46,180 nucleotides of DNA from a virus, in the IMG/VR virus record IMGVR_UViG_3300043496_000061, positions 1 to 46,180 of that record. The stretch is one strand, 5' to 3'. The notes under the pieces are model-generated. The model ran no database searches. It was not told the origin of the DNA and saw only the letters and a list, made by a program, of their open reading frames with translations. Made by a program: the position numbers and the translations under genes. Position 1 is the first letter of the stretch; every line of letters begins with the position of its first letter. Of this stretch, positions 30,338 through 45,112 are shown piece by piece.

Positions 30338-30389
30338 AGCGCCTCCTCTGCGTATCGGTAAGGAGTTACGGAACGCCAATCCTCAGAGA

Positions 30390-31278: not shown

Positions 31279-31305
31279 GTCGTCCCCTCCAGTGGGGTCG
31301 GCTAA

Positions 31306-31336
31306 GACCCCGGCCTGGTTGCACAGGTTCGGGGTC
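31306..31336. terminator. Hairpin upstream of the homing endonuclease
   Basis: GACCCCG (31306-31312) pairs with CGGGGTC (31330-31336), with an inner CCTG/CAGG pair and a small bulge. It could terminate read-through transcription from the early region or regulate the homing gene's leader. Confidence 0.45.
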
Positions 31337-31356
31337 GCTTGGTGTTCAGGGGCTGG

Positions 31357-31512
31357 CTAGTGGCTCAGTCGCTTGAGTAGCTGCTGCCACGTCGACGGCG
31401 GCTGGTACCACGTACGCGCCTGCTCCCATGTCTCGACCAGTGGGAGCGGGTAGGTGGCTGGCTCAGTCTTGGCTGTGCGGTGTCTGCCTCGGGTCCAGCG
31501 TGGCCAGCGCAC
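31357..31512 (-). CDS. Possible small Trp-rich protein, 51 aa
   Basis: A GTG-started frame ends in TAG at 31357-31359. The C-terminal half reads like a real protein (LVETWEQARTWYQPPSTWQQ then LLKRLSH); the N-terminal part (RWPRWTRGRHRTAK) is basic. The SD is weak (GGGTGG). A longer overlapping frame (31365-31595) looks random. Confidence 0.35.
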   Translation of the reverse strand: MRWPRWTRGRHRTAKTEPATYPLPLVETWEQARTWYQPPSTWQQLLKRLSH

Positions 31513-31604
31513 GAGAGACCACCACCCTCAGCTTGACGAGCCAGCGTGTGGTCGGTCGCCTGTGGCGCCCTTGCATCCCACCCCCAGTGGGTCATGACAG
31601 AGGT

Positions 31605-31642
31605 GAAGCCCCGACCTGAGGCTGAGTCCAGGTCGGGGCTTC
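31605..31642. terminator. Strong terminator at the end of the early operon
   Basis: A perfect 13-bp stem (GAAGCCCCGACCT, 31605-31617, with its complement at 31630-31642) around a 12-nt loop. It stands downstream of the early genes and upstream of the homing/packaging genes, so it probably separates early and late transcription. The stem arms share the GAAGCCCC start with the 5581-5613 terminator. Confidence 0.8.
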
Positions 31643-31846
31643 TATGCCCTCGTGATCAAACCGAGGAAAGCTGTCGAGACAGGCCCGGATCAAGGCGTCC
31701 AGCGCGTCCGCTGTCCACTCCCCGACCTGTCCCGTATAACGCCCAGCAATCCCGGAGGATGCTGAGTAGCAATCTGGAGAGACACCCCTCCGAGAACTGA
31801 TTTCACCACACTGAGGGGTTGACATCCAAGCGACACGCTGGGTGGG
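31643..31846. other. Intergenic stretch without a confident gene
   Basis: This roughly 200-bp stretch is less GC-rich than its surroundings. One frame (31592-31825, minus) is open for 77 codons. It lacks an SD, has atypical codon third positions in its first half and runs through the terminator, so I do not call it. A plus-strand TTGACA at 31819-31824 lacks a partner -10. A late promoter may lie here but none is convincing. Confidence 0.5.
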
Positions 31847-31915
31847 TCACACCAACAGGTCCCGCCATGCCCATACAAGGCCGATGATTCCTACGGCGAC
31901 AGCCAGGAACTCCAT
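31847..31915 (-). CDS. Tiny membrane peptide, 22 aa
   Basis: An ATG overlapping the previous stop (TGATG) gives a single hydrophobic helix with a charged end (EFLAVAVGIIGLVWAWRDLL). Such micro-proteins may be regulators or lysis aids, but it could also be chance. Coupling and the clean helix are the only evidence. Confidence 0.4.
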   Translation of the reverse strand: MEFLAVAVGIIGLVWAWRDLLV

Positions 31916-32100
31916 CACCCAGCCCCGCCTTCGCGGAGGCGCCGGGCATCTACCGTGAGTCCGAGAGCTTCAGCCTCATCGGGGTCTGTGATCTGCTTGC
32001 CCTCACTGAGTCTCATGAGGACGCTGCCGCTGGGTCGAGTCGAGTGGCTGATCTGGCCGCCTTCCGCACGCCGGAACAACCATCTGATCACGCTCTTCAT
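31915..32100 (-). CDS. Small basic protein, 61 aa
   Basis: The ATG at 32100 overlaps the upstream stop (ATGA). The product begins KSVIRWLFRRAEGG and carries KQITDPDEAEALGLTVDARR, a helix-rich acidic stretch. The function is unknown. It is the second-last gene of the early operon. Confidence 0.6.
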   Translation of the reverse strand: MKSVIRWLFRRAEGGQISHSTRPSGSVLMRLSEGKQITDPDEAEALGLTVDARRLREGGAG

Positions 32101-32999
32101 CCCGCCTCGCCTCCTAATTCCAGCCTAGCGCTGGCATCCGACACGTCATACAGCGTGAGTCCGTTATGGTCCTTGCCCCGCTTCCGCACCAGCCCTCTGG
32201 ATCCCCACACCCGGATGACGCTGGCCTTGACCCCGATCCGGTCGGCCATGTCGGAGGCGGTCAGGTGCACTGCATGGGCTTTGTACGCCGCGCCCACAGC
32301 GAAGCGGTACTCCGACTCCGTCACGGTGCGGTGGCAGGTGCGGCAGTGCCAGTGGTCGTCGTCACCTCGGGTCATGTGCTTCTTGCACTGCAGGCAGGGC
32401 GCGCCTCGCTCCTCCCTGATCCCGTCTCGCAGAACATCCTCCAGGTGCGCCCGGCACCCCCGCAGTTCCCGGGCGAACTCGTCGAACGGCGGCTCGATCT
32501 GCTCGGCCATGTAGCCGATCTGCGTATCCAGATACGCCCACGAGGAGGCGGTGGTGACGGTGGCCTCGCTGTAGTGGTCGAGGTGATCGCGCCAGATCTG
32601 CTCCCAGGTTCCGAGGATCCACAGCGGGTGGCTCTCGTCGCGGCAGTCCTCGAGGTAGGCGGCGTCGAGTCGGCCCACCATCGCGGATGTTGCTCGGTTC
32701 CTCCACGCCTCCGGGTCCGAGGTGGGGCCGAGAAGCATCATGGCTTCGCTCTGGACGCCCCTCTCCACGGCTTCGGCGGGCAGAGACGCACACAGGTCCC
32801 CGATGGCCTTCAGATCGCTCCTAGTGGCATCCAGGCAATCCACGCACGCCGCTTTGGCGTGGAGGCGTCCACAGATTACGCAGTGCGTCTCGGTGCAGGG
32901 CAGGCATCCGAGCTCGCGGTCGTCGCAGGCGCACGGATTGAGGTGCCGGCCAGACATGACCCTCGGCTCGCTGGTGGAGACGAACTTGCAGTTGCTCAT
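32097..32999 (-). CDS. Multi-zinc-knuckle protein with C-terminal helix-turn-helix, 300 aa
   Basis: The N-terminal ~55 residues have several Cys/His pairs (NPCACDDRELGCLPC, THCVICGRLH, CVDC). A helical middle follows (about 60-195). A zinc ribbon occupies about 202-223 (CLQC then WHCRTCHR), and a C-terminal helix-turn-helix of MerR/winged type about 245-275 (LTASDMADRIGVKASVIRVW). This suggests a DNA-binding regulator or replication-associated protein. Related large 'zinc finger' proteins are common and unassigned in actinophages. The ATG at 32999 overlaps the upstream stop. Confidence 0.7.
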   Translation of the reverse strand: MSNCKFVSTSEPRVMSGRHLNPCACDDRELGCLPCTETHCVICGRLHAKAACVDCLDATRSDLKAIGDLCASLPAEAVERGVQSEAMMLLGPTSDPEAWRNRATSAMVGRLDAAYLEDCRDESHPLWILGTWEQIWRDHLDHYSEATVTTASSWAYLDTQIGYMAEQIEPPFDEFARELRGCRAHLEDVLRDGIREERGAPCLQCKKHMTRGDDDHWHCRTCHRTVTESEYRFAVGAAYKAHAVHLTASDMADRIGVKASVIRVWGSRGLVRKRGKDHNGLTLYDVSDASARLELGGEAG

Positions 33000-33211
33000 C
33001 CCGCCTCCTGGTTGTGCTTGTACGTTCGGATGGCAGCCGCCTTCTCGACCACGTCTCGAGGCACCTTCTTGAGGGCGATGCACGCGCACCAGTCGTACTG
33101 GGCGTACCCCTCGAAAGCTCCTGAGGTGAAGAACAGCTTCGGGTGCATCTCCTCCTGATCCATCAGTTCGATGACCAGGTCGTAGACCCAGGCAGGCGGT
33201 TCGGTGCTCAT
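32996..33211 (-). CDS. Hypothetical protein, 71 aa
   Basis: An ATGA-coupled gene. The product starts STEPPAWVYDLVIELMDQEE and contains a YDWCACIALKKVPRDVVEK helix. No family is recognised. It is acidic at the N-terminus and basic at the C-terminus. Confidence 0.65.
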   Translation of the reverse strand: MSTEPPAWVYDLVIELMDQEEMHPKLFFTSGAFEGYAQYDWCACIALKKVPRDVVEKAAAIRTYKHNQEAG

Positions 33212-33381
33212 CTGGGCTTCCCTTCGCCGTGTGCCCCTGTGACGGCTTGACGGGTGAGGGTGATGTCCAGGTCCGCGATGAGGGCTGGCAGGTCGCCCAG
33301 TGCCCGCTCCAGCCGCCGAGCGCATGCCTTCCCGAGGAAGGCGTCTCCTGCGGGCTCGCCGCACACGCAGTTGTTGGTCAC
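33208..33381 (-). CDS. Small zinc-knuckle protein, 57 aa
   Basis: A GTG start is coupled to the upstream stop. The beginning TNNCVCGEPAGDAFLGKACA gives C-x-C...C, and ALGDLPALIADLDITLTRQ follows. This pattern is one I recognise from small unassigned actinophage early proteins, probably DNA- or protein-binding. Confidence 0.7.
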   Translation of the reverse strand: MTNNCVCGEPAGDAFLGKACARRLERALGDLPALIADLDITLTRQAVTGAHGEGKPR

Positions 33382-33563
33382 GTCGCCTCCTCGTGGTTCT
33401 GACAGAAGCGGGGCCCAACTTCGCTGCACCGCGAGTTCAGGCAGCGGCTGATCCAGAGCGCCTCGCCCGGTGGGCGGGCCAGGTACAGGCACATCGGGCA
33501 GATGAAGCGGCGGCGACGGTGTACGCCGACACGACACAGGGATCTCGCAAGCCAGCTGTTCAT
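33378..33563 (-). CDS. Small Cys-rich basic protein, 61 aa
   Basis: ATG 33563 overlaps the lipoprotein gene's stop. The basic N-terminus (SWLARSLCRVGVHRRRR) precedes CPMC, and CLNSRC and C-x-NH follow, a possible double zinc knuckle. The function is unknown. Confidence 0.6.
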   Translation of the reverse strand: MNSWLARSLCRVGVHRRRRFICPMCLYLARPPGEALWISRCLNSRCSEVGPRFCQNHEEAT

Positions 33564-33724
33564 GCGGCCCTCGTCTCGCCGGGCCCGCAGCGCTTGTTCC
33601 CCATCGTGTGACAGTTCCAGCAGGGGTCTTCCTCGTGGCAGCTGGTGGTGGGCTGCTTGGTGGGCTCCTGTGGGCAGCCGCTTGCGGTGAGCAGGAGGGC
33701 CAGGGTCAGGACTGCGGCTCTCAT
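33560..33724 (-). CDS. Small predicted lipoprotein, 54 aa
   Basis: The ATG at 33724 follows GGAGAA. The signal peptide RAAVLTLALLLTASGC ends in a lipobox (LTASG-C17), so Cys17 should be lipid-modified at the membrane. A mature chain of 38 residues has five more Cys (CHEEDPCWNC then C). A surface lipoprotein in the early operon is unusual; superinfection exclusion or envelope sensing is possible. Confidence 0.65.
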   Translation of the reverse strand: MRAAVLTLALLLTASGCPQEPTKQPTTSCHEEDPCWNCHTMGNKRCGPGETRAA

Positions 33725-33752
33725 GAGTTCTCCTTGGCGGTCGGGCGGTACG

Positions 33753-34208
33753 TCATGGGTGGTCCCGCTTGTTCCAGCAGGCCTCGTTGCAAGTTGCTTC
33801 GAGAGGGTGCATACCTGGATGGGCGGGCCGCTCGGCCTCCTTGGTGCCGATTTCGCGGGCGATGGCGGCGGCGATTCGGAAGGGCGTGTAGCTGCCGGAG
33901 AAGGGGTGCGTCTCGATGGCCTGCGCGATCTCCGCTGCCGTCTCCTTCCGGCCCAGCGCGTACCCGATGCGGGTCTGGACCTCGATCTGGTAGGCCCGCA
34001 GATGCGGGAGAACGGCCTCGACAGCGGCCTCCGCTTCAGCCCGCCAGGTGAGGGGGTCGCCGTTGAAGGCGCGGCCGATAGCGACCGCGGCGGCCTTCAC
34101 CGCCTCGTTGTAGTGCGCGGGGCGCGCGCGCCCCAGACGCTGCGCCTGGTGGATCGCCTTACCGGCTGAGCGGGCAGCCTTCATCTCGGCGCGGTCGTCA
34201 GTCGTCAT
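33753..34208 (-). CDS. Hypothetical helical protein, 151 aa
   Basis: An Ala/Glu-rich helical protein (KAARSAGKAIHQAQRLGRAR, EAEAAVEAVLPHLRAYQIEV) with a Cys pair near the end (TCNEACWNK). It overlaps the upstream gene by 11 bp. No family is recognised. Confidence 0.65.
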   Translation of the reverse strand: MTTDDRAEMKAARSAGKAIHQAQRLGRARPAHYNEAVKAAAVAIGRAFNGDPLTWRAEAEAAVEAVLPHLRAYQIEVQTRIGYALGRKETAAEIAQAIETHPFSGSYTPFRIAAAIAREIGTKEAERPAHPGMHPLEATCNEACWNKRDHP

Positions 34209-34395
34209 CGGAGGTCTCCCTGATTACCGAATGGAAATCGGCTCGGATCTGCTCTGCCTCGTCGTGGCCTGGATTGCAGCACGGCAGCGGCGGGTCTTGG
34301 TCCACACATCCGCAGCACATGTGCCCCATGCGCTGATGGTGCGCAATGTATGCATCAGGTGTCGGGAAGCGAGCGACGAACTCCTCGTCAGCCAT
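34198..34395 (-). CDS. Small Cys-rich protein, 65 aa
   Basis: The ATG at 34395 lies inside the end of the upstream gene (8-bp overlap). The product has YIAHHQRMGHMCCGCVD then LPCCNPGHDEAEQI, at least five Cys and four His, so it probably binds metal. No named family. Confidence 0.6.
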   Translation of the reverse strand: MADEEFVARFPTPDAYIAHHQRMGHMCCGCVDQDPPLPCCNPGHDEAEQIRADFHSVIRETSDDD

Positions 34396-34582
34396 GGTTG
34401 GCTCCTCGGCGTTCGCACTTCTCCAATGGACACACGCCCGGTATGGCGGCCTTGTCGTCCAGTTCGTGGCCACGCATGCAGTACCAGCGGCAGGGGTGCG
34501 GGTCCGCGCAGTCCTGGCGGGGCTCGCAGATAATGATCTGGCTCTCGCGGGCCTCGGTGAAGGCGGCTCGGTCGTCAGTCAT
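34388..34582 (-). CDS. Small Cys-rich protein, 64 aa
   Basis: ATGA-coupled. It contains IICEPRQDCADPHPCRWYC and CPLEKCERRG, i.e. six Cys. The N-terminal helix TDDRAAFTEARES is acidic. The function is unknown. Confidence 0.6.
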   Translation of the reverse strand: MTDDRAAFTEARESQIIICEPRQDCADPHPCRWYCMRGHELDDKAAIPGVCPLEKCERRGANHG

Positions 34583-34740
34583 GCGGGCCTCATCTCACAG
34601 GAGCATCGGACGCTGCGGGACCACCAATGGCGCTTGGTGCGGTGCTGGCAGCGCAGGGACGCCCAGTGGTGGTCGATCAGGGCGTGGCCACACAGGACGC
34701 ACGCGGAGGTGCGCAGGGCCCGGCGCTCGGTCTCGCTCAC
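34579..34740 (-). CDS. Small zinc-binding basic protein, 53 aa
   Basis: The GTG at 34740 overlaps the loader-like gene's stop (GTGA). C-x2-C-x-H (CVLCGHALIDHH) and RCQHRTKRHWWSRSVRCSC give a likely zinc ribbon with a basic surface, suggesting nucleic-acid binding. Confidence 0.6.
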   Translation of the reverse strand: MSETERRALRTSACVLCGHALIDHHWASLRCQHRTKRHWWSRSVRCSCEMRPA

Positions 34741-35177
34741 TTGGTTGTCTCCTGCTCGGTGTACTGCCGTCGTCGCGGGATGCGCTGGAAGGTGTTCTCG
34801 AGTTGCTTCATCGGCCGCTCGGGTAGGTCGAGCTCCTTCGGCTTCAGGTCCCCGTCAGCGATCGCCTTCTCGGTGGTCTTCTGCCACTCGATGAACGCCT
34901 TCCAGTTGTCCGGGTCGAGCTCCTCGGCCGGCGGGGGTGGCATGGGGCCGAACTCCGCGATCCGCTTCGACCGGATCCGCTTCACCTCCGCGATGATCTC
35001 GGCGACCGCGATGAACACCTGCTTGGCGCCCAGCGCCTTCACTGCCTCGAGAGCATCGACGTAGCGGATGTCCGGCATCAGGTCGGCCCAAGCGTCGCCG
35101 GTGTACTCGTTGAAGCGCTGCTGCGGGCACAGCTGCTCGACGTAGCCCGACAGCATCACCGCCTCCTGTGGCGTCAT
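34737..35177 (-). CDS. Helicase-loader-like replication protein, 146 aa
   Basis: The N-terminal helical region (VEQLCPQQRFNEYTGDAWAD then YVDALEAVKALGAKQVFIAV, EVKRIRSKRI) matches the pattern of phage G40P-type helicase-loader proteins in actinophages. There these genes follow the initiator. It would bring the host replicative helicase to the phage origin. No phage helicase, primase or polymerase is seen, so host enzymes must be used. ATG 35177 overlaps the upstream stop. Confidence 0.65.
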   Translation of the reverse strand: MTPQEAVMLSGYVEQLCPQQRFNEYTGDAWADLMPDIRYVDALEAVKALGAKQVFIAVAEIIAEVKRIRSKRIAEFGPMPPPPAEELDPDNWKAFIEWQKTTEKAIADGDLKPKELDLPERPMKQLENTFQRIPRRRQYTEQETTK

Positions 35178-35893
35178 GCGATCTCTCCTCGATGGGTTGC
35201 GACTCTCTGGAGGGACCGCTCGAGGCGGCCAACGGAGTCAGGGCGGCTAGGTGCCGCCCGCTTGTAGGTCTTGGCGTTGTTCAGCCAGGTGCGGAAGGCC
35301 GCGTCCCACGACTTCATCGTCGAGCCCTTGGCTTCGTGGTGGTCGCGGAACCTGCGGAGCTCGAAGGCCGGGTCGAGGCCGTACTCGACCGCGATCTCGA
35401 GGTGGTCCTCCTTCGGCTTCCAGTCGGCCGGGAGTTGTGTCGCGCGCTTCGGCGCGGCCTTACTAGTTCCGTTAGGAACTAGGGACGGGTCGGGACGGGA
35501 CGGGGTAAGGCGAACCTCTTCCGAACTTCCCTCGAAGTTCGGCGTTGGTTCGGGCGAACTTCGGCGTGACCGAACCCTCTTCATACGCTCTCGGGCAGCC
35601 TCTCGCTCACCCATTACCTGTTCGCGAGTTGGCTGCCACCTCGACCAGTTGTGAAACACGAACCCAGTTGAATCTCGTTCCCATAAGCCAACTTCGCAAA
35701 GGATGTCGGCGTATTTCTTGCTGGATCCGAACTCGGTGATGAGGTGTCCACCCAGGTGGCCATCGGTCAACTGGGATGCGCACCAGCCGCCGGCGAGGGT
35801 CCACAGTCCGATCGCCGCAGCCCTGTCTCGGCGCGGGATGGCGAGCACCTTGCGGGACTGGTGGAACGAGTCATCCACCTTGAACCATGCCAC
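35174..35893 (-). CDS. Replication initiator / replisome organiser-like protein, 239 aa
   Basis: The N-terminal winged helix (MAWFKVDDSFHQSRKVLAIP then AAIGLWTLAGGWCASQLTDG, VGLWER) is the conserved start of a large family of actinophage DNA-binding replication proteins. A basic disordered linker follows (about 95-150). The C-terminal domain has LDPAFELRRFRDHHEAKGS and SWDAAFRTWLNNAK, as in DnaD/O-protein-like replisome organisers. It probably binds the origin and hands the helicase over with the neighbouring loader. GTG 35893 overlaps the upstream stop by 1 bp. Confidence 0.75.
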   Translation of the reverse strand: MAWFKVDDSFHQSRKVLAIPRRDRAAAIGLWTLAGGWCASQLTDGHLGGHLITEFGSSKKYADILCEVGLWERDSTGFVFHNWSRWQPTREQVMGEREAARERMKRVRSRRSSPEPTPNFEGSSEEVRLTPSRPDPSLVPNGTSKAAPKRATQLPADWKPKEDHLEIAVEYGLDPAFELRRFRDHHEAKGSTMKSWDAAFRTWLNNAKTYKRAAPSRPDSVGRLERSLQRVATHRGEIA

Positions 35894-36054
35894 TAGGCGG
35901 CCTCCTCGGTTTCGGGCTTCTTAAGCGATTCCTTCAGGAGTCGCTGGATGCGTGCATCGGTCAGGTCTGGCCGGCGGGGTGGATGGTCGGTCCACCACAC
36001 AGACGGGCCGTACCGCTCTTGGCGGAGAGCGGCGTACAGGGGATCTGGGTTCAT
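35893..36054 (-). CDS. Small protein, 53 aa
   Basis: The ATG at 36054 overlaps the HNH gene's stop. The product NPDPLYAALRQERYGPSVWW then DLTDARIQRLLKESLKK is short and helical. The pattern 'LYAALRQERYGPSVWW' recalls the small C-terminal segment common next to actinophage replication genes. Unassigned. Confidence 0.6.
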   Translation of the reverse strand: MNPDPLYAALRQERYGPSVWWTDHPPRRPDLTDARIQRLLKESLKKPETEEAA

Positions 36055-36413
36055 GCCACGCCCACCGAAGGGGTCTTGCCGCCGGTTGTGTCGAGCGTCA
36101 TCCACCCGTGGTAGGTCTTCACCGGCACGTCTGCGGGGTCCTGCAGGCGGCGCACGATCCACCCGTAGGCGCGCGCCTGCTCCACGTTTCCGTGCGCCCA
36201 GCCGTGGCAGCCGGTGGTGCCTGATCCGCACATCCTGATCAGGTTCTCCGGGGACTCGAGCAGACCCGAGCCGCCCATGCCTTTCAGCTTGCGGTGGTGT
36301 ACCGATGACGGGACATCGACGATGGAGCAGCCGCACCGCTGACATCTGTGGCCGTCCCTGGCTCGTACGAGCCTGCGGGCGGCCTCTACGTCCTTACGGG
36401 TTGCCTTCGGCAT
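36051..36413 (-). CDS. HNH endonuclease, 120 aa
   Basis: A compact HNH nuclease: C24-x2-C27, catalytic-type H39-H40, N57 and C62...C69-H70...H74 (VHHRKLKGMGG, NLIRMCGSGTTGCHGWAHGN). It lies immediately after the DpdA-like gene and could attack unmodified DNA, act in recombination or be a selfish element. The ATG follows the upstream stop by 1 bp. Confidence 0.8.
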   Translation of the reverse strand: MPKATRKDVEAARRLVRARDGHRCQRCGCSIVDVPSSVHHRKLKGMGGSGLLESPENLIRMCGSGTTGCHGWAHGNVEQARAYGWIVRRLQDPADVPVKTYHGWMTLDTTGGKTPSVGVA

Positions 36414-37202
36414 CTACAGCACCTCCATCGGTAGGCCCAGTTGGATAGGGGCTCGTAGAACTTCGAGGACCCGGCGGCGCCATGACAGCGCGAACTGGAG
36501 GCAGTTCGCCTCGCTCTGACCGTGGCCGTGACTGCAGGGGTGGATCTTGCGGCCCCCGTACGACCAAGCCAGCGAGTCGGCGGAGGTGAGGCAGGGCGCG
36601 TAGGCGGCGAGACCGTGGGTCTTCACGCCGAACCCGTGCAGGTTCAGGCCGCGGGCGTGGAGCATCGACGCGATGAGGTCGATCTCTTCGGTTGCTTGCC
36701 GTCGGCACACTGAGCCGAGCCCGACGACCTTCTCTTTGGTGAGGTCGACGCCGGCTCGTTCGTACAGGTCGACGCAGACCTGGTAGTCGCGGATCTCGAA
36801 CCCCTGGAGTACCGGAACGATGGGAAGGTCGGGTGCCAGGTCGCGCAGGTGCAGGAAGTTGTCGACCGTCAGGGCCTGGTGTTCCCTCACACTCAGACCC
36901 GTCATCGCGCGTGCGGACGGTTCGCACATCCAGTCCATCGGCGCCGCCCAGTCAAGGCCACCGATCTCATCGCGGGCTCGCCGCACCTCAGCGACATACT
37001 GGTCTGGGGTGATCATCCAGCGTCCGTGCTTGTGCAGCTGGGTGAAGCCGCCCGAGTCCATGGCCCACCGGCCGCGAGCCCGCGGAAGGGAGTCCCGCAG
37101 GACGCCGGGGCTCTTCTCCATGACGGTGCGGCTCACGAACAGCGGAATGTCGGTTCGCTCGAGCCACCGCGGCCTATGGGTACCGAGATAGAACTGTGTC
37201 AT
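36414..37202 (-). CDS. dpdA: DpdA/TGT-like transglycosylase for 7-deazaguanine DNA modification
   Basis: This 262-residue protein shows the ordered active-site segments of tRNA-guanine transglycosylases. AMDSGGF (D49) matches the TGT DSGGFQ base-binding Asp. A second Asp lies in PMDWMCEP (D90), and VLQGF (Q133-G134) matches QGG. GLGSVCRR follows, then SADSLAWS, with D209 as the candidate nucleophile. HPCSHGHGQSEANC may bind metal. It is about 100 residues shorter than tRNA-TGT, as in DpdA. DpdA exchanges guanine in DNA for preQ0-type bases, blocking restriction enzymes. It overlaps the transporter gene (ATGA), which supports this role. No folE/queD/queE/queC is visible in this window. Confidence 0.8.
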   Translation of the reverse strand: MTQFYLGTHRPRWLERTDIPLFVSRTVMEKSPGVLRDSLPRARGRWAMDSGGFTQLHKHGRWMITPDQYVAEVRRARDEIGGLDWAAPMDWMCEPSARAMTGLSVREHQALTVDNFLHLRDLAPDLPIVPVLQGFEIRDYQVCVDLYERAGVDLTKEKVVGLGSVCRRQATEEIDLIASMLHARGLNLHGFGVKTHGLAAYAPCLTSADSLAWSYGGRKIHPCSHGHGQSEANCLQFALSWRRRVLEVLRAPIQLGLPMEVL

Positions 37203-37708
37203 GCAGTCACCGGCCGACGGGTGTAGCGGTAGCCGACAACAGCGAGGACGACAACCCCGGTGACCAGCATCTTCCCGACCACCTGACCGGCGAACGCCTG
37301 CCGCAAGGGGAAGCCCGCGATCGTGAGGAATACGATCGTGTCGACTACCGCTCCAACCAGGTTGGATGCGGTCGCGGCGCGGATGTAGCCACGCTTGCGG
37401 AGAGGTGTATAGATCGCGAAGTCGGCGGACTCACTGAGCAGGAACGCTGCTGCTGACGCGGTCGCGATCGCGGGTGCGCTGATTGCGAACGACAGTGCGG
37501 CGCCGGCAACGATCAGTGCGACGACCCATCGACGGCCTGCGGTGTCTTGTACGGCATCACGGAGGATGAACGCGAGGCCAGCGAAGTACGTGCCTGCAGT
37601 GGCCATCAAGCCGAAGCCAACCGGGACCATGCCGTACTCGCTGGTGACGTAGTTGGCGGCGAGGATGGTAGCGATGAAGCCGATCGCCGCAGAAGCCTTG
37701 ATCCACAT
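37199..37708 (-). CDS. yhhQ: YhhQ/VUT-family 7-deazaguanine precursor transporter
   Basis: This 169-residue integral membrane protein has five to six helices. Its family motifs are ANYVTSEYG, AGTYFAGLAFILRDAVQD (R50-D51), FLLSESADFAIYTPLRKRG (E93, D96) and SNLVGAVVDT (D123). The E. coli member YhhQ takes up preQ0 and preQ1. Here it would import a deazaguanine for the adjacent DpdA-like enzyme. ATG 37708 overlaps the SSB stop (TGATG), and an upstream in-frame start would lie within ssb. Phage-borne transporters are rare, so the pairing is informative. Confidence 0.85.
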   Translation of the reverse strand: MWIKASAAIGFIATILAANYVTSEYGMVPVGFGLMATAGTYFAGLAFILRDAVQDTAGRRWVVALIVAGAALSFAISAPAIATASAAAFLLSESADFAIYTPLRKRGYIRAATASNLVGAVVDTIVFLTIAGFPLRQAFAGQVVGKMLVTGVVVLAVVGYRYTRRPVTA

Positions 37709-38124
37709 CAGAACGGCGGGGCAGTGTCGGCGCCGGCCCACGGGTCCTGCGATTCGGCCGGCGCGGACGAGCGGATCGCAGGCGCTACGCCGGGCTTGAC
37801 CACAAGTGCCACCTCGTACGCCTGGACCTCGAACACGGTGCGCTTGTTGCCGTCGCGGTCGTCGTAGTCACGCTGGCGAAGGGTGCCGGTCACGATGACC
37901 TTGGCGCCGCGGTGGACGTGCTCGGCCACTGCCTCGGCCTTCTCCTCCCAGATGTTGACGGTGAGGAAGCAGGACTCGGCGTTCTCCCACTTGCCGGTGG
38001 CCTCGTCCTTCTTGGACTTGTTGGCAGCGACCCGGAAGTTGGCGACCGCCTTGCCGCTCGGGGTGAACCGGAGCTCTACGTCGTCGACTACATTCCCGGT
38101 GATCTGGATGCTGGGCAGAGGCAT
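37708..38124 (-). CDS. ssb: Single-stranded DNA-binding protein
   Basis: This is a 138-residue OB-fold SSB: ITGNVVDDVELRFTPSGKAV, FRVAANKS, WEEKAEAVAEHVHRGAKVIV, TGTLRQRDYDDRDG, and an acidic C-terminal tip (WAGADTAPPF) that recruits partner proteins. It coats single-stranded phage DNA during replication and recombination. It is placed between the recombination genes and the deazaguanine genes, in the same coupled operon. Confidence 0.93.
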   Translation of the reverse strand: MPLPSIQITGNVVDDVELRFTPSGKAVANFRVAANKSKKDEATGKWENAESCFLTVNIWEEKAEAVAEHVHRGAKVIVTGTLRQRDYDDRDGNKRTVFEVQAYEVALVVKPGVAPAIRSSAPAESQDPWAGADTAPPF

Positions 38125-38125
38125 G

Positions 38126-38365
38126 TCAGGTGATCTCTCTATTCGTGGCGATGTGATCGGCTAAGAGTTGGTAGGCGTCGCGCTCTGCGATGCGGTCCGG
38201 AATGCCGCGCTCGCGCATCTTCAGCCAGAACGCTCGGGTCTCGTCGTCGGCGTTCTGCTCCCACCTGGTCCGCTCGTTGATGCGGGTCTGGAGGGTTCGG
38301 AGGATCTGCTCCTTGGCCACGTCATAGGCGGCGGCGACCAGTTCAGCGTTGGTCTTCTGGGTCAT
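38126..38365 (-). CDS. Hypothetical helical protein, 79 aa
   Basis: An acidic/basic helical protein (TNAELVAAAYDVAKEQILRT, RGIPDRIAERDAYQLLADHI). It is ATGA-coupled to the upstream gene and 1 bp from ssb. No family is recognised. Confidence 0.65.
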   Translation of the reverse strand: MTQKTNAELVAAAYDVAKEQILRTLQTRINERTRWEQNADDETRAFWLKMRERGIPDRIAERDAYQLLADHIATNREIT

Positions 38366-38502
38366 CCGAGGTCACCGTCCCCATCGCTGAGGGTGATCTC
38401 GTACGGGCGGTCGCGGGGTTCCTCCGGGTTCGGGAAGCATTTACGGCACTGGCCGAAGACGACCTCGTCTCCCTGATCCGAGCAGCCGCAACGCTTACTC
38501 AT
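38362..38502 (-). CDS. Small zinc-knuckle protein, 46 aa
   Basis: ATG 38502 lies inside the upstream gene (8-bp overlap). C-x-C...C-x2-C (CGCSDQGDEVVFGQCRKC) predicts one zinc knuckle, followed by an acidic tail (SDGDGDLG). Unassigned. Confidence 0.6.
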   Translation of the reverse strand: MSKRCGCSDQGDEVVFGQCRKCFPNPEEPRDRPYEITLSDGDGDLG

Positions 38503-38686
38503 GGGGCACCCCTCCGCAGTTCCTGCCGTCACAGGTCGGGATGGGCGCTGGGTCGTCGTCGGGGCGGATGGTGGGGTTGGCGCCATGGAGCGGGCAGTCC
38601 ACGTCGGGGCCGTCCGTATCCGGGCCGAGGTTGCAGATGCAGTACCGGTCTGCCGTCTCCTGGTCGTAGCCGTCGGCGCGCCTCAT
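38495..38686 (-). CDS. Small Cys-rich protein, 63 aa
   Basis: The sequence has RYCICNLGPDTDGPDVDCPL then HG, and CDGRNCGG near the end, i.e. at least five Cys in knuckle-like spacing. Such short 'YCICN...DCPLHG' proteins are widespread in actinophage early regions and unassigned. ATGA-coupled. Confidence 0.65.
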   Translation of the reverse strand: MRRADGYDQETADRYCICNLGPDTDGPDVDCPLHGANPTIRPDDDPAPIPTCDGRNCGGVPHE

Positions 38687-38949
38687 ACGAACTCACCCCG
38701 CGGCATGTCTTCGAGGGGTCCGCCGAACCTGGCGCGCTGGAGCATCCGTCGTACCGCCTGCGTAGCGTCCACATCCCCGGCGACACCCGCACGGGACAGG
38801 GCTTCGAACCCGAGCCGGTACAGGTCCGGCATCAGCGCCGCATCCGACCACTGGTGTTCACGGATCTCGCCGGCTATCGCCTCTACCTCGTCAGGGGTCA
38901 ACGGAGGCTGGTGGGTGATGGTTGGCAGGTCCCACGGGTCGGCGGTCAT
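38683..38949 (-). CDS. Hypothetical helical protein, 88 aa
   Basis: ATG 38949 overlaps the Sak4-like gene's stop. It is predicted entirely helical (PDEVEAIAGEIREHQWSD, ATQAVRRMLQRARFG). No family is recognised; it may be a partner of the ATPase. Confidence 0.6.
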   Translation of the reverse strand: MTADPWDLPTITHQPPLTPDEVEAIAGEIREHQWSDAALMPDLYRLGFEALSRAGVAGDVDATQAVRRMLQRARFGGPLEDMPRGEFV

Positions 38950-39839
38950 GCTGCGCTCGCCTTCTGCGCCTGCTCCAGCGCCATGTAGCGGGCCTTGATC
39001 AGGTCCACCAGGGCCATCGGCTGACCCTCGCCATTCGGGACTGCGGCGTGGTCGATGCCGAGCTTCCGGGCCGTCGCCGCATATCCGACGAGGTCGGCCA
39101 GTTCCACCGCGTCCGCCATTACCAGTTCGCGGATGTCCCGCGCGTCGAGGACGGATTCGCCTTGCTCGATCCAGCGGCGGATCGTCAGCCCCAGTTCGGC
39201 GTCCGGCTCCTTGATGACCGAGCGGGTCAAAGCAGGGATGCGGGACTTGGACACCGTGAGGGTGTTCTCGTGGTCCATGTCGCCCACCAGGTCGAACTCG
39301 TACTCGACCCCTTCGCGCTGCTCCGGCTTCAACCCCACCTTGCGGGGGACCTTCTTGCCGCGGTCGTTCTCCTCGATCACGTACTCCGTCTTCACCCGCA
39401 GTGTCGCGATCACGTGGCCGGGGTAGGAGATGAGGGCGTCGATCATGCGGCGCTCGTCCGGGCGGACCTCTTTCCAGCCGGAGAAGTTGTTGCCGTTCTT
39501 CGCGCGCCGGTCGACCTGCTCCAGCATCCCGTCGACACCCATCCAATAGTGCGACCACGAGTCGAGGATGAGGACGTCGAACCCTTCCTGCCCAGCCTCC
39601 GCGAGCAGGGCAGTGAGGGCGTCAGGGGCGAACGAGCTGGGGGCGACCTGCTGGAAGTCCCAGCCGTTCACCCCCGCGTACTTGGAGGCCGAGCCGCGTT
39701 CGGTGTCGATGACCGCGATCCGCTCGCCCAGCGCGTGCGCCAGGGTGAGGGCGGTCCAGGTCTTGCCGCTACCGGAGGGGCCGGCGAGGGCGATGCGCGC
39801 CTTCGTGGACGTCCTGGTGGCGGGGGTGAAGCTGCTCAT
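38946..39839 (-). CDS. Sak4/RecA-like phage recombination ATPase, 297 aa
   Basis: The Walker A GPSGSGKT (20-27), IAVIDTERGSASKYA (42-56) and Walker B FDVLILDSWSHYW (D93) place it in the RecA-like phage nucleotide-binding family (Sak4-type, PF13479). These anneal or pair single strands with SSB and support replication/repair. The C-terminal ~70 residues are acidic and helical. The gene is near ssb and rusA, forming a recombination set without an obvious exonuclease. ATG 39839 overlaps the upstream stop. Confidence 0.85.
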   Translation of the reverse strand: MSSFTPATRTSTKARIALAGPSGSGKTWTALTLAHALGERIAVIDTERGSASKYAGVNGWDFQQVAPSSFAPDALTALLAEAGQEGFDVLILDSWSHYWMGVDGMLEQVDRRAKNGNNFSGWKEVRPDERRMIDALISYPGHVIATLRVKTEYVIEENDRGKKVPRKVGLKPEQREGVEYEFDLVGDMDHENTLTVSKSRIPALTRSVIKEPDAELGLTIRRWIEQGESVLDARDIRELVMADAVELADLVGYAATARKLGIDHAAVPNGEGQPMALVDLIKARYMALEQAQKASAA

Positions 39840-40099
39840 GATGCGTCTCCGATGTAGGTAAGTTCGGCGTCCAGGAACGCGATGAAGCGAGCCGCCGGGT
39901 CAGCGCGGTGTCGTGGGCCGCTGCGGGGGACATGCTCTGCGTGCGGGTCGTGGACGTGAACCGCCACCTGGATGCCCTTGCGTTGGCGCCACACGATCTC
40001 CGGTGGGTCGGCCTCGAGGGCTTCGTCCATCCGGCGGCGGTACAGGTTCGCGGTGTTGCTCTCTGGCTCCTCATCGAGGGCGCGCGGTCCGGTCCTCAT
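39836..40099 (-). CDS. Hypothetical protein, 87 aa
   Basis: A charged protein (MRTGPRALDEEPESNTANLY then RRRMDEALEADPPEIVWRQR, HVHDPHAEHVPR) with helical ends. No family is recognised. ATGA-coupled at both ends. Confidence 0.6.
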   Translation of the reverse strand: MRTGPRALDEEPESNTANLYRRRMDEALEADPPEIVWRQRKGIQVAVHVHDPHAEHVPRSGPRHRADPAARFIAFLDAELTYIGDAS

Positions 40100-40368
40100 G
40101 CTGCGCTCGCGTCCTGCTCAGCGCGCCACTCGGTCTCATACTTGACGCGGCCACCGGGTGAGAGCCCGCCGAAGATGCCGAACCGCAGGCCACGGCTCAG
40201 GCCGTGCTCCTTGCGCATCGCGTAGTCCAGGCACTGGAGCCTCACGGTGCAGGCGGTCTCGCATATGAAGAGAGGCTCCTTGTTGCTGTCACCCTTCTCC
40301 GGGAACCAAAGGTCACAGTCGATCTCGCGGCACGCCGCAGACTCAGTCCACGTCTCGTAGTAGGTCAT
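40096..40368 (-). CDS. WhiB-like iron-sulphur transcription regulator, 90 aa
   Basis: WhiB-family proteins are restricted to Actinobacteria and their phages and bind a [4Fe-4S] cluster through four Cys. Here AAC13...C36-x3-C40-x5-C46 gives the set, followed by a GIFGGLSPGGR turn (the family's G[V/I]WGG) and a basic tail. C18 is an extra Cys. The spacing C-x3-C differs from the usual C-x2-C. Phage copies can alter host superinfection or septation control. ATG 40368 overlaps the RusA stop. Confidence 0.8.
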   Translation of the reverse strand: MTYYETWTESAACREIDCDLWFPEKGDSNKEPLFICETACTVRLQCLDYAMRKEHGLSRGLRFGIFGGLSPGGRVKYETEWRAEQDASAA

Positions 40369-40745
40369 GACGGCACCTCCGTGATGGTGAACTTCAGGTA
40401 GCAGGCGATGCCTGGGGTCTTGCGGCGCTCAGGGGAGGCGCGGTAGGTGGTGGCCTCGACGTACTTGTCGGAGTCGTCCAGCAGCAGGCCGGCGTCCACG
40501 AAGCCGTCAATCGCAGCCTTTGCCGTGGGGGCGAGGTTGGAGGCGTCTCGCCGGTGGTTGTCGGGCCATGTCACCTCGACGTCGATCGAGGCGCGCTTCA
40601 TCGGTGGATACCGGTGATGCTTGGCCATCACCCAGGCCATGTCGCGGATCACCTTGACGTGGCGGGCTTTCGGGGCCCAGTGCTTCTCCTTGTTCGCGCT
40701 GAGCACCACGTCGCGTCCGATCGCGAGGACGATCACGGCGGTCAT
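40365..40745 (-). CDS. rusA: RusA-like Holliday junction resolvase, 126 aa
   Basis: The RusA signature spans about 65-91: RRDASNLAPTAKAAIDGFVD (D67, N70, K76, D80) and LLLDDSDKYV (D90, D91). It cuts four-way DNA junctions that form during recombination and replication, so branched DNA can be packaged. ATG 40745 overlaps the upstream stop; it is coupled to the WhiB-like gene downstream. Confidence 0.9.
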   Translation of the reverse strand: MTAVIVLAIGRDVVLSANKEKHWAPKARHVKVIRDMAWVMAKHHRYPPMKRASIDVEVTWPDNHRRDASNLAPTAKAAIDGFVDAGLLLDDSDKYVEATTYRASPERRKTPGIACYLKFTITEVPS

Positions 40746-40933
40746 GACCCCACCTCCGCGATGAGCCCGGTGGAGCAGGCGGCCAGAACAATCGGCCAGA
40801 CGGCCCGGTAGCGGTACTGGCCGGGGTCGCGGCGGGGACGGACCAGGTAGCCGGTTTCGAGGGCAACCGTGTGCAGTTCGGTACAGGTGGCGCGCGCGAT
40901 CCTGTTCACTGCGTCAAGGTCGGGTTCACTCAC
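40742..40933 (-). CDS. Hypothetical protein, 63 aa
   Basis: A GTG start with SD AGAGGGAG. The product (SEPDLDAVNRIARATCTELH then TGYLVRPRRDPGQYRYRAVW) is short and ends in a mildly hydrophobic stretch (PIVLAACSTGLIA). No domain. It is the first gene after a non-coding gap holding a hairpin (40934-41037). Confidence 0.6.
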   Translation of the reverse strand: MSEPDLDAVNRIARATCTELHTVALETGYLVRPRRDPGQYRYRAVWPIVLAACSTGLIAEVGS

Positions 40934-40960
40934 GGGTTGCTCCCTCTTGGTGGCTTGTAG

Positions 40961-40983
40961 ACCCTGCTCCCCAGAAGCAGGGT
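40961..40983. terminator. Hairpin in the 104-bp gap between two early gene groups
   Basis: ACCCTGCT (40961-40968) pairs with AGCAGGGT (40976-40983) across a 7-nt loop; a second small inverted repeat TTGCC/GGCAA follows at 40997-41009. This gap separates the group from 41038 upward and the recombination group, so partial termination or mRNA processing is likely. Confidence 0.5.
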
Positions 40984-41037
40984 GGGCGGTTGTTAGTTGC
41001 CTAGGGCAATCACCAATCCCAGACTCGCTGCATGAGG

Positions 41038-41532
41038 TCACCCCCCTTCGACTCGGAGGTCGCGGACCCATTCGGTGCGGGCCTGCGAGTCCAGTTCGAG
41101 CCGCAGGAGCCGCAGGCGGGTCTGTACGGGGTCGGAGGCGAGCGCCTCGGGGGTGAGCCACCGCTGCGCCTGGTAGTCGAGCTTCGACTGCTTCCGCAGC
41201 CCCCAGTACCACCCGGCGTAAGGCGCGTCGGGCCATGCCTGGTCCACGGTCAGGTCGATGACCAGCCGGCCGTTGGTCTCCAGCCAGCAGTGGTCCTGCA
41301 GCGACTTCAGGTAGCCCTGGTGTACGTCGCCGACGCAGTACAGGGTGTCGAGGTCGTGGTCTTCCTTGAGGCGTTCCTGCAGCCAGGCTGAGGTGACACC
41401 GCACTGGCCTGCCGGGTCGCCGGGTGCGCCTTGGCGTCTGTGGGCGGTCGCAGCGGACCAGGCAGGTTCTACCTGCTTGCGGTAGGCGGCGAGGATGGGC
41501 AGCAGGTCGTCGAGGCTCATCTGTGCGCTCAT
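41038..41532 (-). CDS. YunG-like protein with Cys-His-Asp pattern, 164 aa
   Basis: The segments GQCGVTSAWLQ, HCWLETNG and VIDLTVDQ resemble the YunG family (GQCAVTAL...HYWN...DLT), which looks like a cysteine protease/transglutaminase fold with a Cys-His-Asp triad. The reaction is unknown. Start ATG 41532 overlaps the upstream stop (ATGA); upstream in-frame starts are less likely. Alternative: an unrelated protein with chance spacing. Confidence 0.55.
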   Translation of the reverse strand: MSAQMSLDDLLPILAAYRKQVEPAWSAATAHRRQGAPGDPAGQCGVTSAWLQERLKEDHDLDTLYCVGDVHQGYLKSLQDHCWLETNGRLVIDLTVDQAWPDAPYAGWYWGLRKQSKLDYQAQRWLTPEALASDPVQTRLRLLRLELDSQARTEWVRDLRVEGG

Positions 41533-41783
41533 GTGCGCACACACCCGTTCGCGTGGCCGTCAGCCATGCGGCAGTTGGCGACCTTGGTGCAGAACCGCTG
41601 CCCCACGTGGATGAGGCCAGCGGCAACGAGGGCGTCGGTGACGTGCCGCTCCCACTCGTTCTCCAGCCAGAGCGCGGAGCCGTAGGGACGCTCCGCCCAT
41701 CCGCACGCGCATGCGCCACCACTCGGCTGAGTGCGAGGCCTGTGCTTCGCCAGCACCCCGACTGTGCGGTCCCGGTTGCTCAT
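41529..41783 (-). CDS. Small zinc-binding-like protein, 84 aa
   Basis: ATG 41783; it overlaps its neighbours at both ends by 4 bp. It contains GGACACGWAERPYGSALWLE, then HVTDALVAAGLIHVGQRFCT and CRMADGHANGC, a pattern typical of small actinophage early proteins with Cys pairs and a helix-rich centre. Unassigned. Confidence 0.65.
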   Translation of the reverse strand: MSNRDRTVGVLAKHRPRTQPSGGACACGWAERPYGSALWLENEWERHVTDALVAAGLIHVGQRFCTKVANCRMADGHANGCVRT

Positions 41784-41980
41784 GCGTCCCACCTGTGGTC
41801 GATGCGGGTGTCGGGGTGGAGTTGCCGCAGTACCTCGTTCGGCTGGTCCACGAAGAGCCGCTGGCTGCGGGCACGGCACCGCTGCCACAACGCCACGAAC
41901 GGGGCAGCGACGACAGAGGCCAGCAGGAAGAAGGCGGCGAACTGCCAGGCGAACTGGATCGCGCGGAAGACGCCGTTCAT
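41780..41980 (-). CDS. Small membrane protein, 66 aa
   Basis: One membrane helix near the N-terminus (FAWQFAAFFLLASVVAAPFV) followed by a basic cytoplasmic domain (RCRARSQRLF...DHRWDA). ATG 41980 is ATGA-coupled. The function is unknown; early phage membrane proteins may block superinfection or alter host metabolism. Confidence 0.6.
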   Translation of the reverse strand: MNGVFRAIQFAWQFAAFFLLASVVAAPFVALWQRCRARSQRLFVDQPNEVLRQLHPDTRIDHRWDA

Positions 41981-42168
41981 GAGGTGGCCTCGGGGTACTC
42001 GATGCGCCATGTCGGGTGCCAGTTGCCGATGAACTTCTCGCCATCGATCCGGATCCGCAGGTGCGCGCCGTCGAAGCCGACGATGGTTCCTGGCTTGCCG
42101 TTGGCGACGATCCGCATCCCGCGCTTGGCCGGGACGCCGTAGTAGTTCCTGACGTACTCGGCCGTCAT
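41977..42168 (-). CDS. Small beta-rich protein, 63 aa
   Basis: The sequence YVRNYYGVPAKRGMRIVANG followed by GTIVGFDGAHLRIRIDG is a compact SH3/KOW-like beta pattern. I associate 'YYGVPAKRG' with a widespread, unassigned actinophage early family. ATGA-coupled at both ends. Confidence 0.7.
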   Translation of the reverse strand: MTAEYVRNYYGVPAKRGMRIVANGKPGTIVGFDGAHLRIRIDGEKFIGNWHPTWRIEYPEATS

Positions 42169-42374
42169 GAGGCCACCAACTCGACGGTGATCCGGAACGG
42201 TGCCGGCGGTACTACCGCACGCAACCGGTCACGCGCCTGCTCGAACTGCGCCTTCACCACGTCGGCGTCGACCGGGACCTCGGGGTCCTGGATGCGGCAC
42301 AACTCCTGCATCCGGTCGACGGCGGCGTCGAAGTCACCCGCGCGGAGCAGGTCCACCACGGTGAGGCTGGTCAC
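42165..42374 (-). CDS. Hypothetical helical protein, 69 aa
   Basis: A helical, acidic protein (TSLTVVDLLRAGDFDAAVDR, DADVVKAQFEQARDRLRAVV). Coupled by ATGA at both ends. No family is recognised. Confidence 0.6.
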   Translation of the reverse strand: MTSLTVVDLLRAGDFDAAVDRMQELCRIQDPEVPVDADVVKAQFEQARDRLRAVVPPAPFRITVELVAS

Positions 42375-42637
42375 TCCGGCGCCTCCGTCTCGACGACGAT
42401 CTCCAGTCGGTCGGCAGGAACCTCAACCACGGCAGGCTTCAGAGGCAACAGCGCCGACGACGGAACGCGGACCGTGAGCTTGACGACGACGGTTCCACCC
42501 TTCGGCGGGTCGGGCTGCTTCTGCGTGATGCGCGCAGCCTTCGCGCCGACTAGTTGCAGGTCGCCGTTCCCCGCGCGGTAGATGCCCCACTCGGGCTCGA
42601 CCTGAAGGAAGAAGGTGGCATCCTGGTAGTCGCTCAT
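42371..42637 (-). CDS. Hypothetical beta-rich protein, 88 aa
   Basis: A beta-strand-rich protein (FFLQVEPEWGIYRAGNGDLQ, KAARITQKQPDPPKGGTVVV, VPADRLEIVVETEAPE). No known motif. ATGA-coupled. Confidence 0.6.
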   Translation of the reverse strand: MSDYQDATFFLQVEPEWGIYRAGNGDLQLVGAKAARITQKQPDPPKGGTVVVKLTVRVPSSALLPLKPAVVEVPADRLEIVVETEAPE

Positions 42638-42771
42638 CGATCCGCCTCCGAACTGGCGGATGCCTCAGCAACCTTGAATCCACAGCACTCTGAGCAGGCG
42701 CGGTCTCCCGCCTGGCGCTCGTTCGTGCAGCCGTCGCAGTACCAAACTGCGGTCTTTCCTGCGTGCGTCAT
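42634..42771 (-). CDS. Small zinc-ribbon protein, 45 aa
   Basis: ATG 42771 overlaps the upstream stop. W-Y-C-D-G-C and C-S-E-C-C form a ribbon (C12, C15, C26, C29) with the Ala/Ser-rich C-terminus. Likely nucleic-acid or protein binding. Confidence 0.65.
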   Translation of the reverse strand: MTHAGKTAVWYCDGCTNERQAGDRACSECCGFKVAEASASSEADR

Positions 42772-44989: not shown

Positions 44990-44996
44990 AGATGCG

Positions 44997-45025: not shown

Positions 45026-45061
45026 TGCGAAGGTGTGCACTGATTCGCTAACATCGGACGA

Positions 45062-45104: not shown

Positions 45105-45112
45105 GGGCGGTG

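What the first reader, a model, noticed from the sequence alone, without database searches (positions are those of the whole stretch)
36414..37708. Salvage-type 7-deazaguanine DNA modification pair: YhhQ-like transporter plus DpdA-like transglycosylase
Seen: two genes overlapping by ATGA, the first with VUT/YhhQ family motifs, the second with TGT-like DSGGF, VLQGF and SADSLAWS segments at short length. Known: DpdA puts preQ0-type bases into DNA in phage and bacteria, YhhQ imports preQ0/preQ1, and such bases block restriction enzymes. Absent from this window: folE, queD, queE, queC or any other synthesis gene. Inference: the phage depends on scavenged or host-made deazaguanine and brings its own importer, a minimal two-gene armour placed in the replication block next to ssb.
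Basis: partly seen in the sequence, partly recalled or inferred. Interest (0 to 1): 0.9.

Follow-up and report, generated by a model that had tools for sequence, protein, structure and literature searches.

The report
Phage importer–DNA base swapper gene pair
This phage carries two overlapping genes, a membrane importer and an enzyme that swaps guanine in DNA for a guanine look-alike, and the same pairing recurs in dozens of unrelated phages that lack the genes to make that look-alike, so they probably scavenge it to disguise their DNA from bacterial defences.

Summary
36414-37202(-) is a DpdA: Pfam PF23859, E 1.6e-78. Its model is closest to the solved DNA preQ0 insertase DpdA (7ui4, Z 18.9), and the catalytic-type residues are invariant. 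37199-37708(-) is a Vut_1/YhhQ-superfamily membrane protein that overlaps it by ATGA. No folE, queD, queE or queC was found in the contig.

The pairing is not chance. A search of IMG/VR for the transporter alone gave 94 distinct VUT clusters. Of these, 89 have a TGT-fold gene within 1.5 kb, all on the same strand, and 67 within 60 bp (1.3 expected for random placement). The partner enzyme comes from three families not detectably alike in sequence. On the transporter tree the partner changes at least 14 times. PreQ0-synthesis genes are almost always absent nearby. Two Fishburnevirus isolates have separately lost both genes.

Best explanation: a two-gene salvage module in which VUT imports a 7-deazaguanine base and DpdA exchanges it for guanine in phage DNA. 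Transport, modification and protection are inferred. The only tested phage of this DpdA subfamily, Orion (no VUT), had unmodified DNA.

DpdA and phage preQ0 transporters are published, and uptake was proposed in 2019. What looks new is the near-obligate, synthesis-free pairing.

The parts
36414..37202 (-). DpdA-type DNA (guanine) transglycosylase, 262 aa; invariant D49, D90, C93, E94, Q133-G134, G161, G163, H189, D209
   Evidence: PF23859 E 1.6e-78; phrog_1279 E 1.5e-80; AF2 pLDDT 93.8; nearest solved structure 7ui4 DNA preQ0 insertase DpdA, Z 18.9, and all 50 listed rows are DpdA or TGT; invariant residues
37199..37708 (-). Vut_1/YhhQ-superfamily membrane protein, 169 aa, presumed importer of a 7-deazaguanine base; invariant N19, R50-D51, E93, D123, Q142, K146 in 20 phage relatives
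   Evidence: PF02592 42.8 bits (cut-off 27.2); phrog_4899 E 5.8e-41; alignment A1; TIGR00697 queuosine precursor transporter 41.8 bits, below its cut-off 50.95
37199..37202 (-). ATGA overlap: start codon of dpdA overlaps stop codon of vut (translational coupling likely)
   Evidence: Junction CGGTGACTGCATGACACAGTTCT
37708..38124 (-). Flanking SSB gene upstream; its stop overlaps the vut start by one base (TGATG). Context, not part of the conserved module
   Evidence: PF00436 E 5.2e-27; junction
36051..36413 (-). Flanking HNH endonuclease-like gene immediately downstream. Context, not conserved with the pair
   Evidence: phrog_740 E 2.8e-30; among 12 related loci found only in L052, over 4 kb away

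Best explanation
The two genes form a salvage-type DNA-modification module. VUT sits in the host membrane and imports a 7-deazaguanine base (preQ0, preQ1, queuine or a relative) that neither the phage nor, often, the host makes. DpdA, a TGT-fold enzyme, then cuts the glycosidic bond of selected guanines in phage DNA and inserts the imported base, which should hinder restriction enzymes. Shown by computation: enzyme fold and catalytic-type residues, transporter superfamily, translational overlap, no synthesis genes in the contig, near-obligate pairing across many phages, repeated swapping of the enzyme partner, and joint loss. Inferred from known relatives: the direction and substrate of transport, insertion into DNA rather than RNA, and protection.
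For: (1) DpdA identity by profile and by fold: PF23859 E 1.6e-78; closest solved chain 7ui4 DpdA, Z 18.9, with only TGT/DpdA in the top 50; the TGT-like motifs hold in 41-51 homologues. (2) VUT superfamily. E. coli YhhQ of this family transports preQ0/preQ1 (PMC5372724, PMC11130926). (3) VUT-only scans of IMG/VR gave 94 clusters at 90% identity; 89 have a TGT-like gene within 1.5 kb, all on the same strand, 67 within 60 bp. Random placement gives 1.3 (maximum 6 in 2000) within 60 bp. (4) Partners belong to three families not detectable from each other: B 48, A (the window's) 21, C 20. The transporter tree needs 14 partner changes, at least 5 each for A and C forced by well-supported branches, and the window's own transporter lies in a starred clade that mixes A and C partners. 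(5) No third gene recurs: apart from overlapping wrong-frame ORFs the next neighbours are in about 10% of loci or fewer. (6) Complete synthesis genes occur beside only 1 of the 94 clusters. (7) Fishburnevirus: Brusacoram and Techage carry two different deletions, each removing the 3' part of VUT and all of the DpdA-like gene present in Bhagsy. (8) The same VUT-DpdA order lies in 29 of 80 bacterial genome loci, nearly all actinobacteria, with no synthesis genes within 8 kb. Full-length QueC is absent from 13 of 25 such genomes and a true tRNA TGT from 48 of 50 genomes tested.
Against: No biochemical evidence for this subfamily. Orion, the only tested phage of this DpdA group, has unmodified DNA (PMC6884629), though it had no precursor source. 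The NCBIfam equivalog for the queuosine precursor transporter is not reached. COG1738 proteins vary in substrate and may carry other purines (PMC5372724). About half of the related VUT-bearing genomes do encode QueC, the same share as VUT-less ones (12/25 versus 11/25), so the transporter is not simply a substitute for host synthesis. The linkage sample is limited to VUTs resembling the seeds, about half of which came from DpdA neighbourhoods.
Confidence: 0.72

Rival explanations
1. The enzyme is a phage tRNA-guanine transglycosylase: the imported base goes into tRNA (host or phage) to tune decoding, not into DNA.
For: TGT and DpdA share the fold; solved tRNA TGTs score almost as high as DpdA (Z 18.8 against 18.9). 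A tRNA-like gene is predicted in the window. Hosts of related elements mostly lack their own TGT.
Against: The specific family is the curated DpdA. No queA/queG-type finishing gene was seen among the genes scanned (not searched for exhaustively). The family B partners include the CAjan DpdA, whose deletion removes DNA modification (PMC6884629). The protein is about 100 residues shorter than TGT.
Confidence: 0.1
2. The DpdA is a working enzyme but lives on host-made 7-deazaguanine; VUT is only a booster, or moves a different purine.
For: 12 of 25 actinobacterial genomes with the VUT-DpdA pair encode a full-length QueC. CAjan, L049 and the published phage EC151 carry synthesis genes as well as a transporter (PMC8310023).
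Against: The other 13 of 25 such genomes have no full-length QueC, and M. smegmatis, host of Bhagsy-type phages, has none of the pathway (PMC6884629). The transporter stays tied to the enzyme through partner changes.
Confidence: 0.1
3. The module is a relic or is silent in most hosts, kept for rare hosts or lost easily; virion DNA is ordinary.
For: Orion DNA is unmodified (PMC6884629). Fishburnevirus relatives thrive after losing the pair.
Against: Catalytic residues are invariant across 41-51 homologues and polar membrane residues across 20, and the overlapping reading frames are intact in the window, so purifying selection acts.
Confidence: 0.06
4. The two genes are unrelated neighbours.
For: Phage genomes are compact, so adjacency alone is weak evidence.
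Against: 67 of 90 adjacent against 1.3 expected, three enzyme families, same strand in 89 of 89.
Confidence: 0.01

Closest known systems
Phage DpdA without synthesis genes ('group 3' of Hutinet et al. 2019, PMC6884629; e.g. mycobacteriophage Orion, Salmonella phage 7-11)
   Same: Same kind of enzyme, and the closest annotated relatives by sequence are mycobacteriophage singleton DpdAs (47-52% identity); no preQ0 synthesis genes. The paper itself proposed host supply or uptake.
   Different: The mycobacteriophage relatives inspected have no VUT beside DpdA. The paper states that phage YhhQ shows no correlation with any group, whereas here the VUT subfamily is almost always beside a TGT-fold gene.
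Seuratvirus/CAjan and Enterobacter phage EC151 preQ0 pathway with 'preQ0 transporter' (PMC8310023; CAjan gp35-gp45)
   Same: DpdA plus a transporter; CAjan gp41 matches the same VUT profile (E 1.7e-32).
   Different: Those phages also carry folE, queD, queE and queC; the window has none, so import would be the only phage-encoded source.
Bacterial dpd islands with YhhQ (PMC11888242)
   Same: DpdA-type DNA modification with a salvage transporter in about 9% of islands.
   Different: The islands carry dpdB, often dpdC, and a restriction operon. The phage pair has no third conserved gene.
Bacterial queuosine salvage (YhhQ/QPTR next to or fused with bTGT; PMC5372724, PMC11130926)
   Same: Importer plus TGT-fold base-exchange enzyme, no synthesis.
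   Different: There the acceptor is tRNA; here the enzyme is of the DNA-acting DpdA family.

Membership tests
DpdA (PF23859, DNA 7-deazaguanine transglycosylase) | Match to the curated family profile over most of its length | tested here: met
   E 1.6e-78, 264 bits against cut-off 27, profile 4-251 of 291
DpdA (PF23859, DNA 7-deazaguanine transglycosylase) | TGT/DpdA fold | tested here: met
   AF2 pLDDT 93.8; 7ui4 Z 18.9, rmsd 3.7, 235 residues; top 50 all TGT/DpdA
DpdA (PF23859, DNA 7-deazaguanine transglycosylase) | TGT-type catalytic and base-binding residues conserved (the D of DSG, D in the second motif, QG, D near the C-terminal end) | tested here: met
   D49, D90, Q133, G134, D209 invariant in 41 homologues. 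Assignment to individual TGT residues is by motif order, from general knowledge of TGT
DpdA (PF23859, DNA 7-deazaguanine transglycosylase) | Zinc site near the C-terminus as in TGT | tested here: inconclusive
   Cys/His-rich segment CSHGHGQSEANC. The family consensus has four Cys/His (C-x-H-x-x-C-A-N-C); the window keeps some of them and the structure was not modelled with metal
DpdA (PF23859, DNA 7-deazaguanine transglycosylase) | 7-deazaguanine present in DNA | not testable with these tools
   Needs LC-MS of virion DNA
Vut_1 superfamily (PF02592) | Profile match above the curated cut-off | tested here: met
   42.8 bits against 27.2
YhhQ/QPTR queuosine precursor transporter (TIGR00697, PRK11212 equivalogs) | Score above the equivalog cut-off | tested here: not met
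   TIGR00697 41.8 against 50.95; PRK11212 27.9 against 252. So not filed as a YhhQ orthologue, only as a Vut_1 relative that probably works like one
YhhQ/QPTR queuosine precursor transporter (TIGR00697, PRK11212 equivalogs) | Six transmembrane helices | tested here: inconclusive
   Five hydrophobic regions above threshold in a simple hydropathy scan; no model made
YhhQ/QPTR queuosine precursor transporter (TIGR00697, PRK11212 equivalogs) | Uptake of preQ0 or preQ1 | not testable with these tools
   Needs complementation of E. coli lacking queD and yhhQ
Phage preQ0/dPreQ0 pathway (CAjan/Rosebush type) | folE, queD, queE, queC in the phage | tested here: not met
   No match in the 46,180-base contig; the contig may be incomplete

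The most novel reading that the evidence does not exclude
A widespread, synthesis-free phage DNA-modification module whose constant part is the importer and whose base-exchange enzyme has been replaced repeatedly by TGT-fold families with no detectable sequence similarity to each other (including phrog_15826, until now of unknown function). In hosts that cannot make 7-deazaguanines the armour would switch on only when neighbouring microbes release the base, so resistance of the phage to restriction would be an environment-dependent trait.
Probability: 0.4. Interest if true: 0.75.

Novelty: new variant of a known kind. Interest (0 to 1): 0.52.

Why it matters
What the many 'singleton' phage DpdAs do has been open since 2019: the tested mycobacterial case was unmodified and no precursor source was known. 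A near-obligate importer-enzyme pair gives them a source and makes a plain prediction: supply the base and the DNA becomes modified. It also proposes a function for two PHROG families of unknown function (phrog_4899 as the importer, phrog_15826 as a DpdA-like enzyme), and points to a natural near-isogenic phage pair (Bhagsy with, Brusacoram without) for the test in a laboratory host that has no queuosine genes. It would also explain why such phages could look unmodified in standard media.

Tried and rejected
Single-sequence search of IMG/VR with the window VUT found no relatives; the alignment-based searches were needed. Direct sequence search of the PDB found no hit for either protein; only fold comparison did. 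Idea that VUT replaces host synthesis: rejected as a simple rule, because QueC is as common in VUT-bearing as in VUT-less genomes (12/25 versus 11/25). Idea of a third conserved component: none found. Most weak QueC 'matches' are short partial hits, mostly of 55-80 positions in long frames, and were not counted. The Rosebush and Orion records themselves are not held, so whether the Rosebush DpdA belongs to this family was not tested. Two key papers (the 2024 MMBR review and the 2023 NAR paper on further phage deazaguanines) are not held, so an earlier report of this linkage there cannot be excluded. The four VUT clusters without an A/B/C partner were inspected: L045 has an adjacent ORF with TGT-like motifs (DSGAFQ ... 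STDSS; motif reading only), L114 is cut 31 bp before VUT, L105 ends 709 bp after VUT and overlaps a QueC, and L108 has no candidate.

Full report
WHAT WAS CLAIMED AND WHAT IS THERE. The window is the whole of an IMG/VR virus record of 46,180 bases, linear and possibly incomplete, with 65.9% G+C. It has a serine-integrase-type gene (117-2225), tape measure, capsid, protease, portal and terminase genes, so it is a tailed, probably temperate phage. Its capsid and terminase are closest, at 43-46% identity, to phages of Gordonia and Mycobacterium, so the host is most likely an actinobacterium. The two claimed genes exist exactly as described: VUT 37199-37708(-) and DpdA 36414-37202(-), overlapping by ATGA. 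The upstream SSB stop overlaps the VUT start as TGATG, so the three genes are probably translated from one transcript (inference).

IDENTITY OF THE ENZYME. Pfam names the family DpdA (PF23859, E 1.6e-78) and PHROGs calls it queuine tRNA-ribosyltransferase (phrog_1279). An AlphaFold2 model built from 41 homologues (pLDDT 93.8) matches the crystal structure of the DNA preQ0 insertase DpdA (7ui4) best, Z 18.9 over 235 residues, with TGTs tied just behind; all 50 listed rows are TGT or DpdA. The TGT-type motifs are invariant in the family: D49-S50, D90-x-M-C-E, Q133-G134, G161, G163, H189-x-F-G and D209-S210.

IDENTITY OF THE TRANSPORTER. The protein is over the Vut_1 cut-off in Pfam but below the NCBIfam cut-offs for the queuosine precursor transporter and for YhhQ proper. 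I therefore file it as a Vut_1 superfamily member that probably works like YhhQ, not as a YhhQ orthologue. Twenty phage relatives share invariant polar residues in or near membrane segments, N19, R50-D51, E93, D123, Q142 and K146, as expected of a working transporter (inference).

IS THE PAIR REAL? This is the main new evidence. I searched IMG/VR for the transporter alone, collapsed the loci to 94 clusters at 90% identity, and looked for TGT-like genes nearby. 90 of 94 loci hold one; 89 are within 1.5 kb, all on the same strand, and 67 are within 60 bp. Random placement of the transporter in the same loci gives 1.3 on average and never more than 6. The partners are of three families that profile searches do not connect: the window's family A (21), family B, which includes the DpdA of phage CAjan (48), and family C, phrog_15826 of unknown function (20). 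Family C was modelled (pLDDT 94.4); among solved structures TGTs dominate its top list at Z 14.3-14.8, tied with a few other TIM barrels, and it keeps the D-N-G and S-x-D-G motifs, so 'DpdA-like' is probable for it, not proven. A tree of the transporters needs 14 changes of partner family, and well-supported branches alone force at least five each for A and C. The window's own transporter sits in a starred group with L007 (family A partner) and Arthrobacter phage Aoka (family C partner). No third gene recurs beside the pair. Limit of this test: seeds and ranking favour transporters like the window's and Pam5's, so the figure applies to this subfamily (phrog_4899-like), not to every viral YhhQ.

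NATURAL DELETIONS. Mycobacteriophage Bhagsy has the intact pair. Brusacoram is about 99% identical on both sides but lacks Bhagsy locus positions 5146-6783, which removes most of VUT, all of the DpdA-like gene and some 650 bases beyond. Techage has a different deletion with breakpoints at about 5266 and 6714. The two genes are lost together and are dispensable on M. smegmatis, a host without queuosine-pathway genes (PMC6884629).

WHERE COULD THE BASE COME FROM? The window has no QueC, QueD, FolE or radical-SAM gene, and full synthesis genes lie beside only one of the 94 transporter clusters, L049. In GTDB genomes, family A DpdA is common in actinobacteria, and in 29 of 80 loci a VUT lies directly upstream in the same order as in the window, with no synthesis genes within 8 kb. 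Of 25 such genomes 12 encode full-length QueC and 13 do not; of 25 VUT-less ones 11 do. Only 2 of 50 have a true tRNA TGT. So in about half of the known carriers neither element nor host appears able to make preQ0, and uptake would be the only route; in the rest, host supply is possible. Presence of VUT does not track absence of host synthesis.

MECHANISM. Most likely VUT imports a 7-deazaguanine base and DpdA swaps it for guanine in phage DNA, probably hindering restriction. Shown here: identities, fold, residues, linkage, partner swapping, joint loss, missing synthesis genes. Inferred from relatives: transport of preQ0/preQ1 by YhhQ (PMC5372724), insertion by phage DpdA with restriction resistance, and its loss in a CAjan dpdA mutant (PMC6884629). 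Unknown: which base, what fraction of guanines, sequence context, and whether the source is environment or host. The chief caution is that the nearest tested phage, Orion, had unmodified DNA (PMC6884629). Relatives of its kind (68-kb Pegunavirus genomes such as Oline; that Orion belongs with these is from general knowledge) carry a family A DpdA at 47% identity without VUT beside it. The Orion result fits a missing precursor but does not prove activity of the subfamily.

COMPARISON WITH THE KNOWN. Hutinet et al. 2019 already proposed uptake for DpdA-only phages and noted phage YhhQ homologues, but saw no correlation with any group. Seuratvirus-type phages and EC151 are published with a preQ0 transporter plus full synthesis (PMC8310023), and CAjan gp41 matches the VUT profile. 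About 9% of bacterial dpd islands have YhhQ (PMC11888242). The window is therefore one member of a salvage-only variant of phage 7-deazaguanine modification. The systematic pairing appears not to be stated in the papers I could read; two relevant papers were not available.

VERDICT. A real, well-supported two-gene module; mechanism probable but untested. New variant of a known kind, moderate interest, raised by the fact that it makes the role of singleton DpdAs directly testable with an existing laboratory phage pair.

Noticed in passing
L032:5146-6783 versus L268 and L267 (mycobacteriophages Bhagsy, Brusacoram, Techage): Two separate natural deletions in Fishburnevirus remove the 3' part of VUT and all of the DpdA-like gene, leaving N-terminal VUT stubs; a near-isogenic plus/minus pair.
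   Followed up: yes
L070:10455-11066 and relatives (phrog_15826): A PHROG family of unknown function that is a probable short TGT/DpdA-like enzyme, paired with VUT in 20 clusters.
   Followed up: yes
L045:1276-2139: ORF directly upstream of a VUT with TGT-like motifs (DSGAFQ ... STDSS) that none of the three family profiles detects; possibly a fourth partner family.
   Followed up: partly
L105:10461-11186, L081/L141 about 9400, L012 about 5990: QueC alone, without folE, queD or queE, beside VUT and/or DpdA in a few viral contigs; possibly a different use of QueC.
   Followed up: no
L239, L209, L206 and other actinobacterial genome loci: VUT-DpdA in the window's order in Pseudonocardiales and Streptomyces genomes; in the one locus looked at (L239) next to recombinase and methylase genes, so likely in mobile elements.
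   Followed up: partly
window 38946-39839: Sak4-like AAA ATPase whose DNA is 76-84% identical to a stretch in Mycobacterium and Gordonia phages, the only part of 30000-46180 with megablast hits; suggests recent exchange.
   Followed up: no
window 41398-41484: ARAGORN reports a tRNA-Arg (anticodon gcg) on the plus strand, opposite to most genes; may be spurious or an attachment-site remnant.
   Followed up: no
window 8119-10821 and 20469-22313: Large reading frames of 900 and 614 aa in the tail region without any PHROG match.
   Followed up: no
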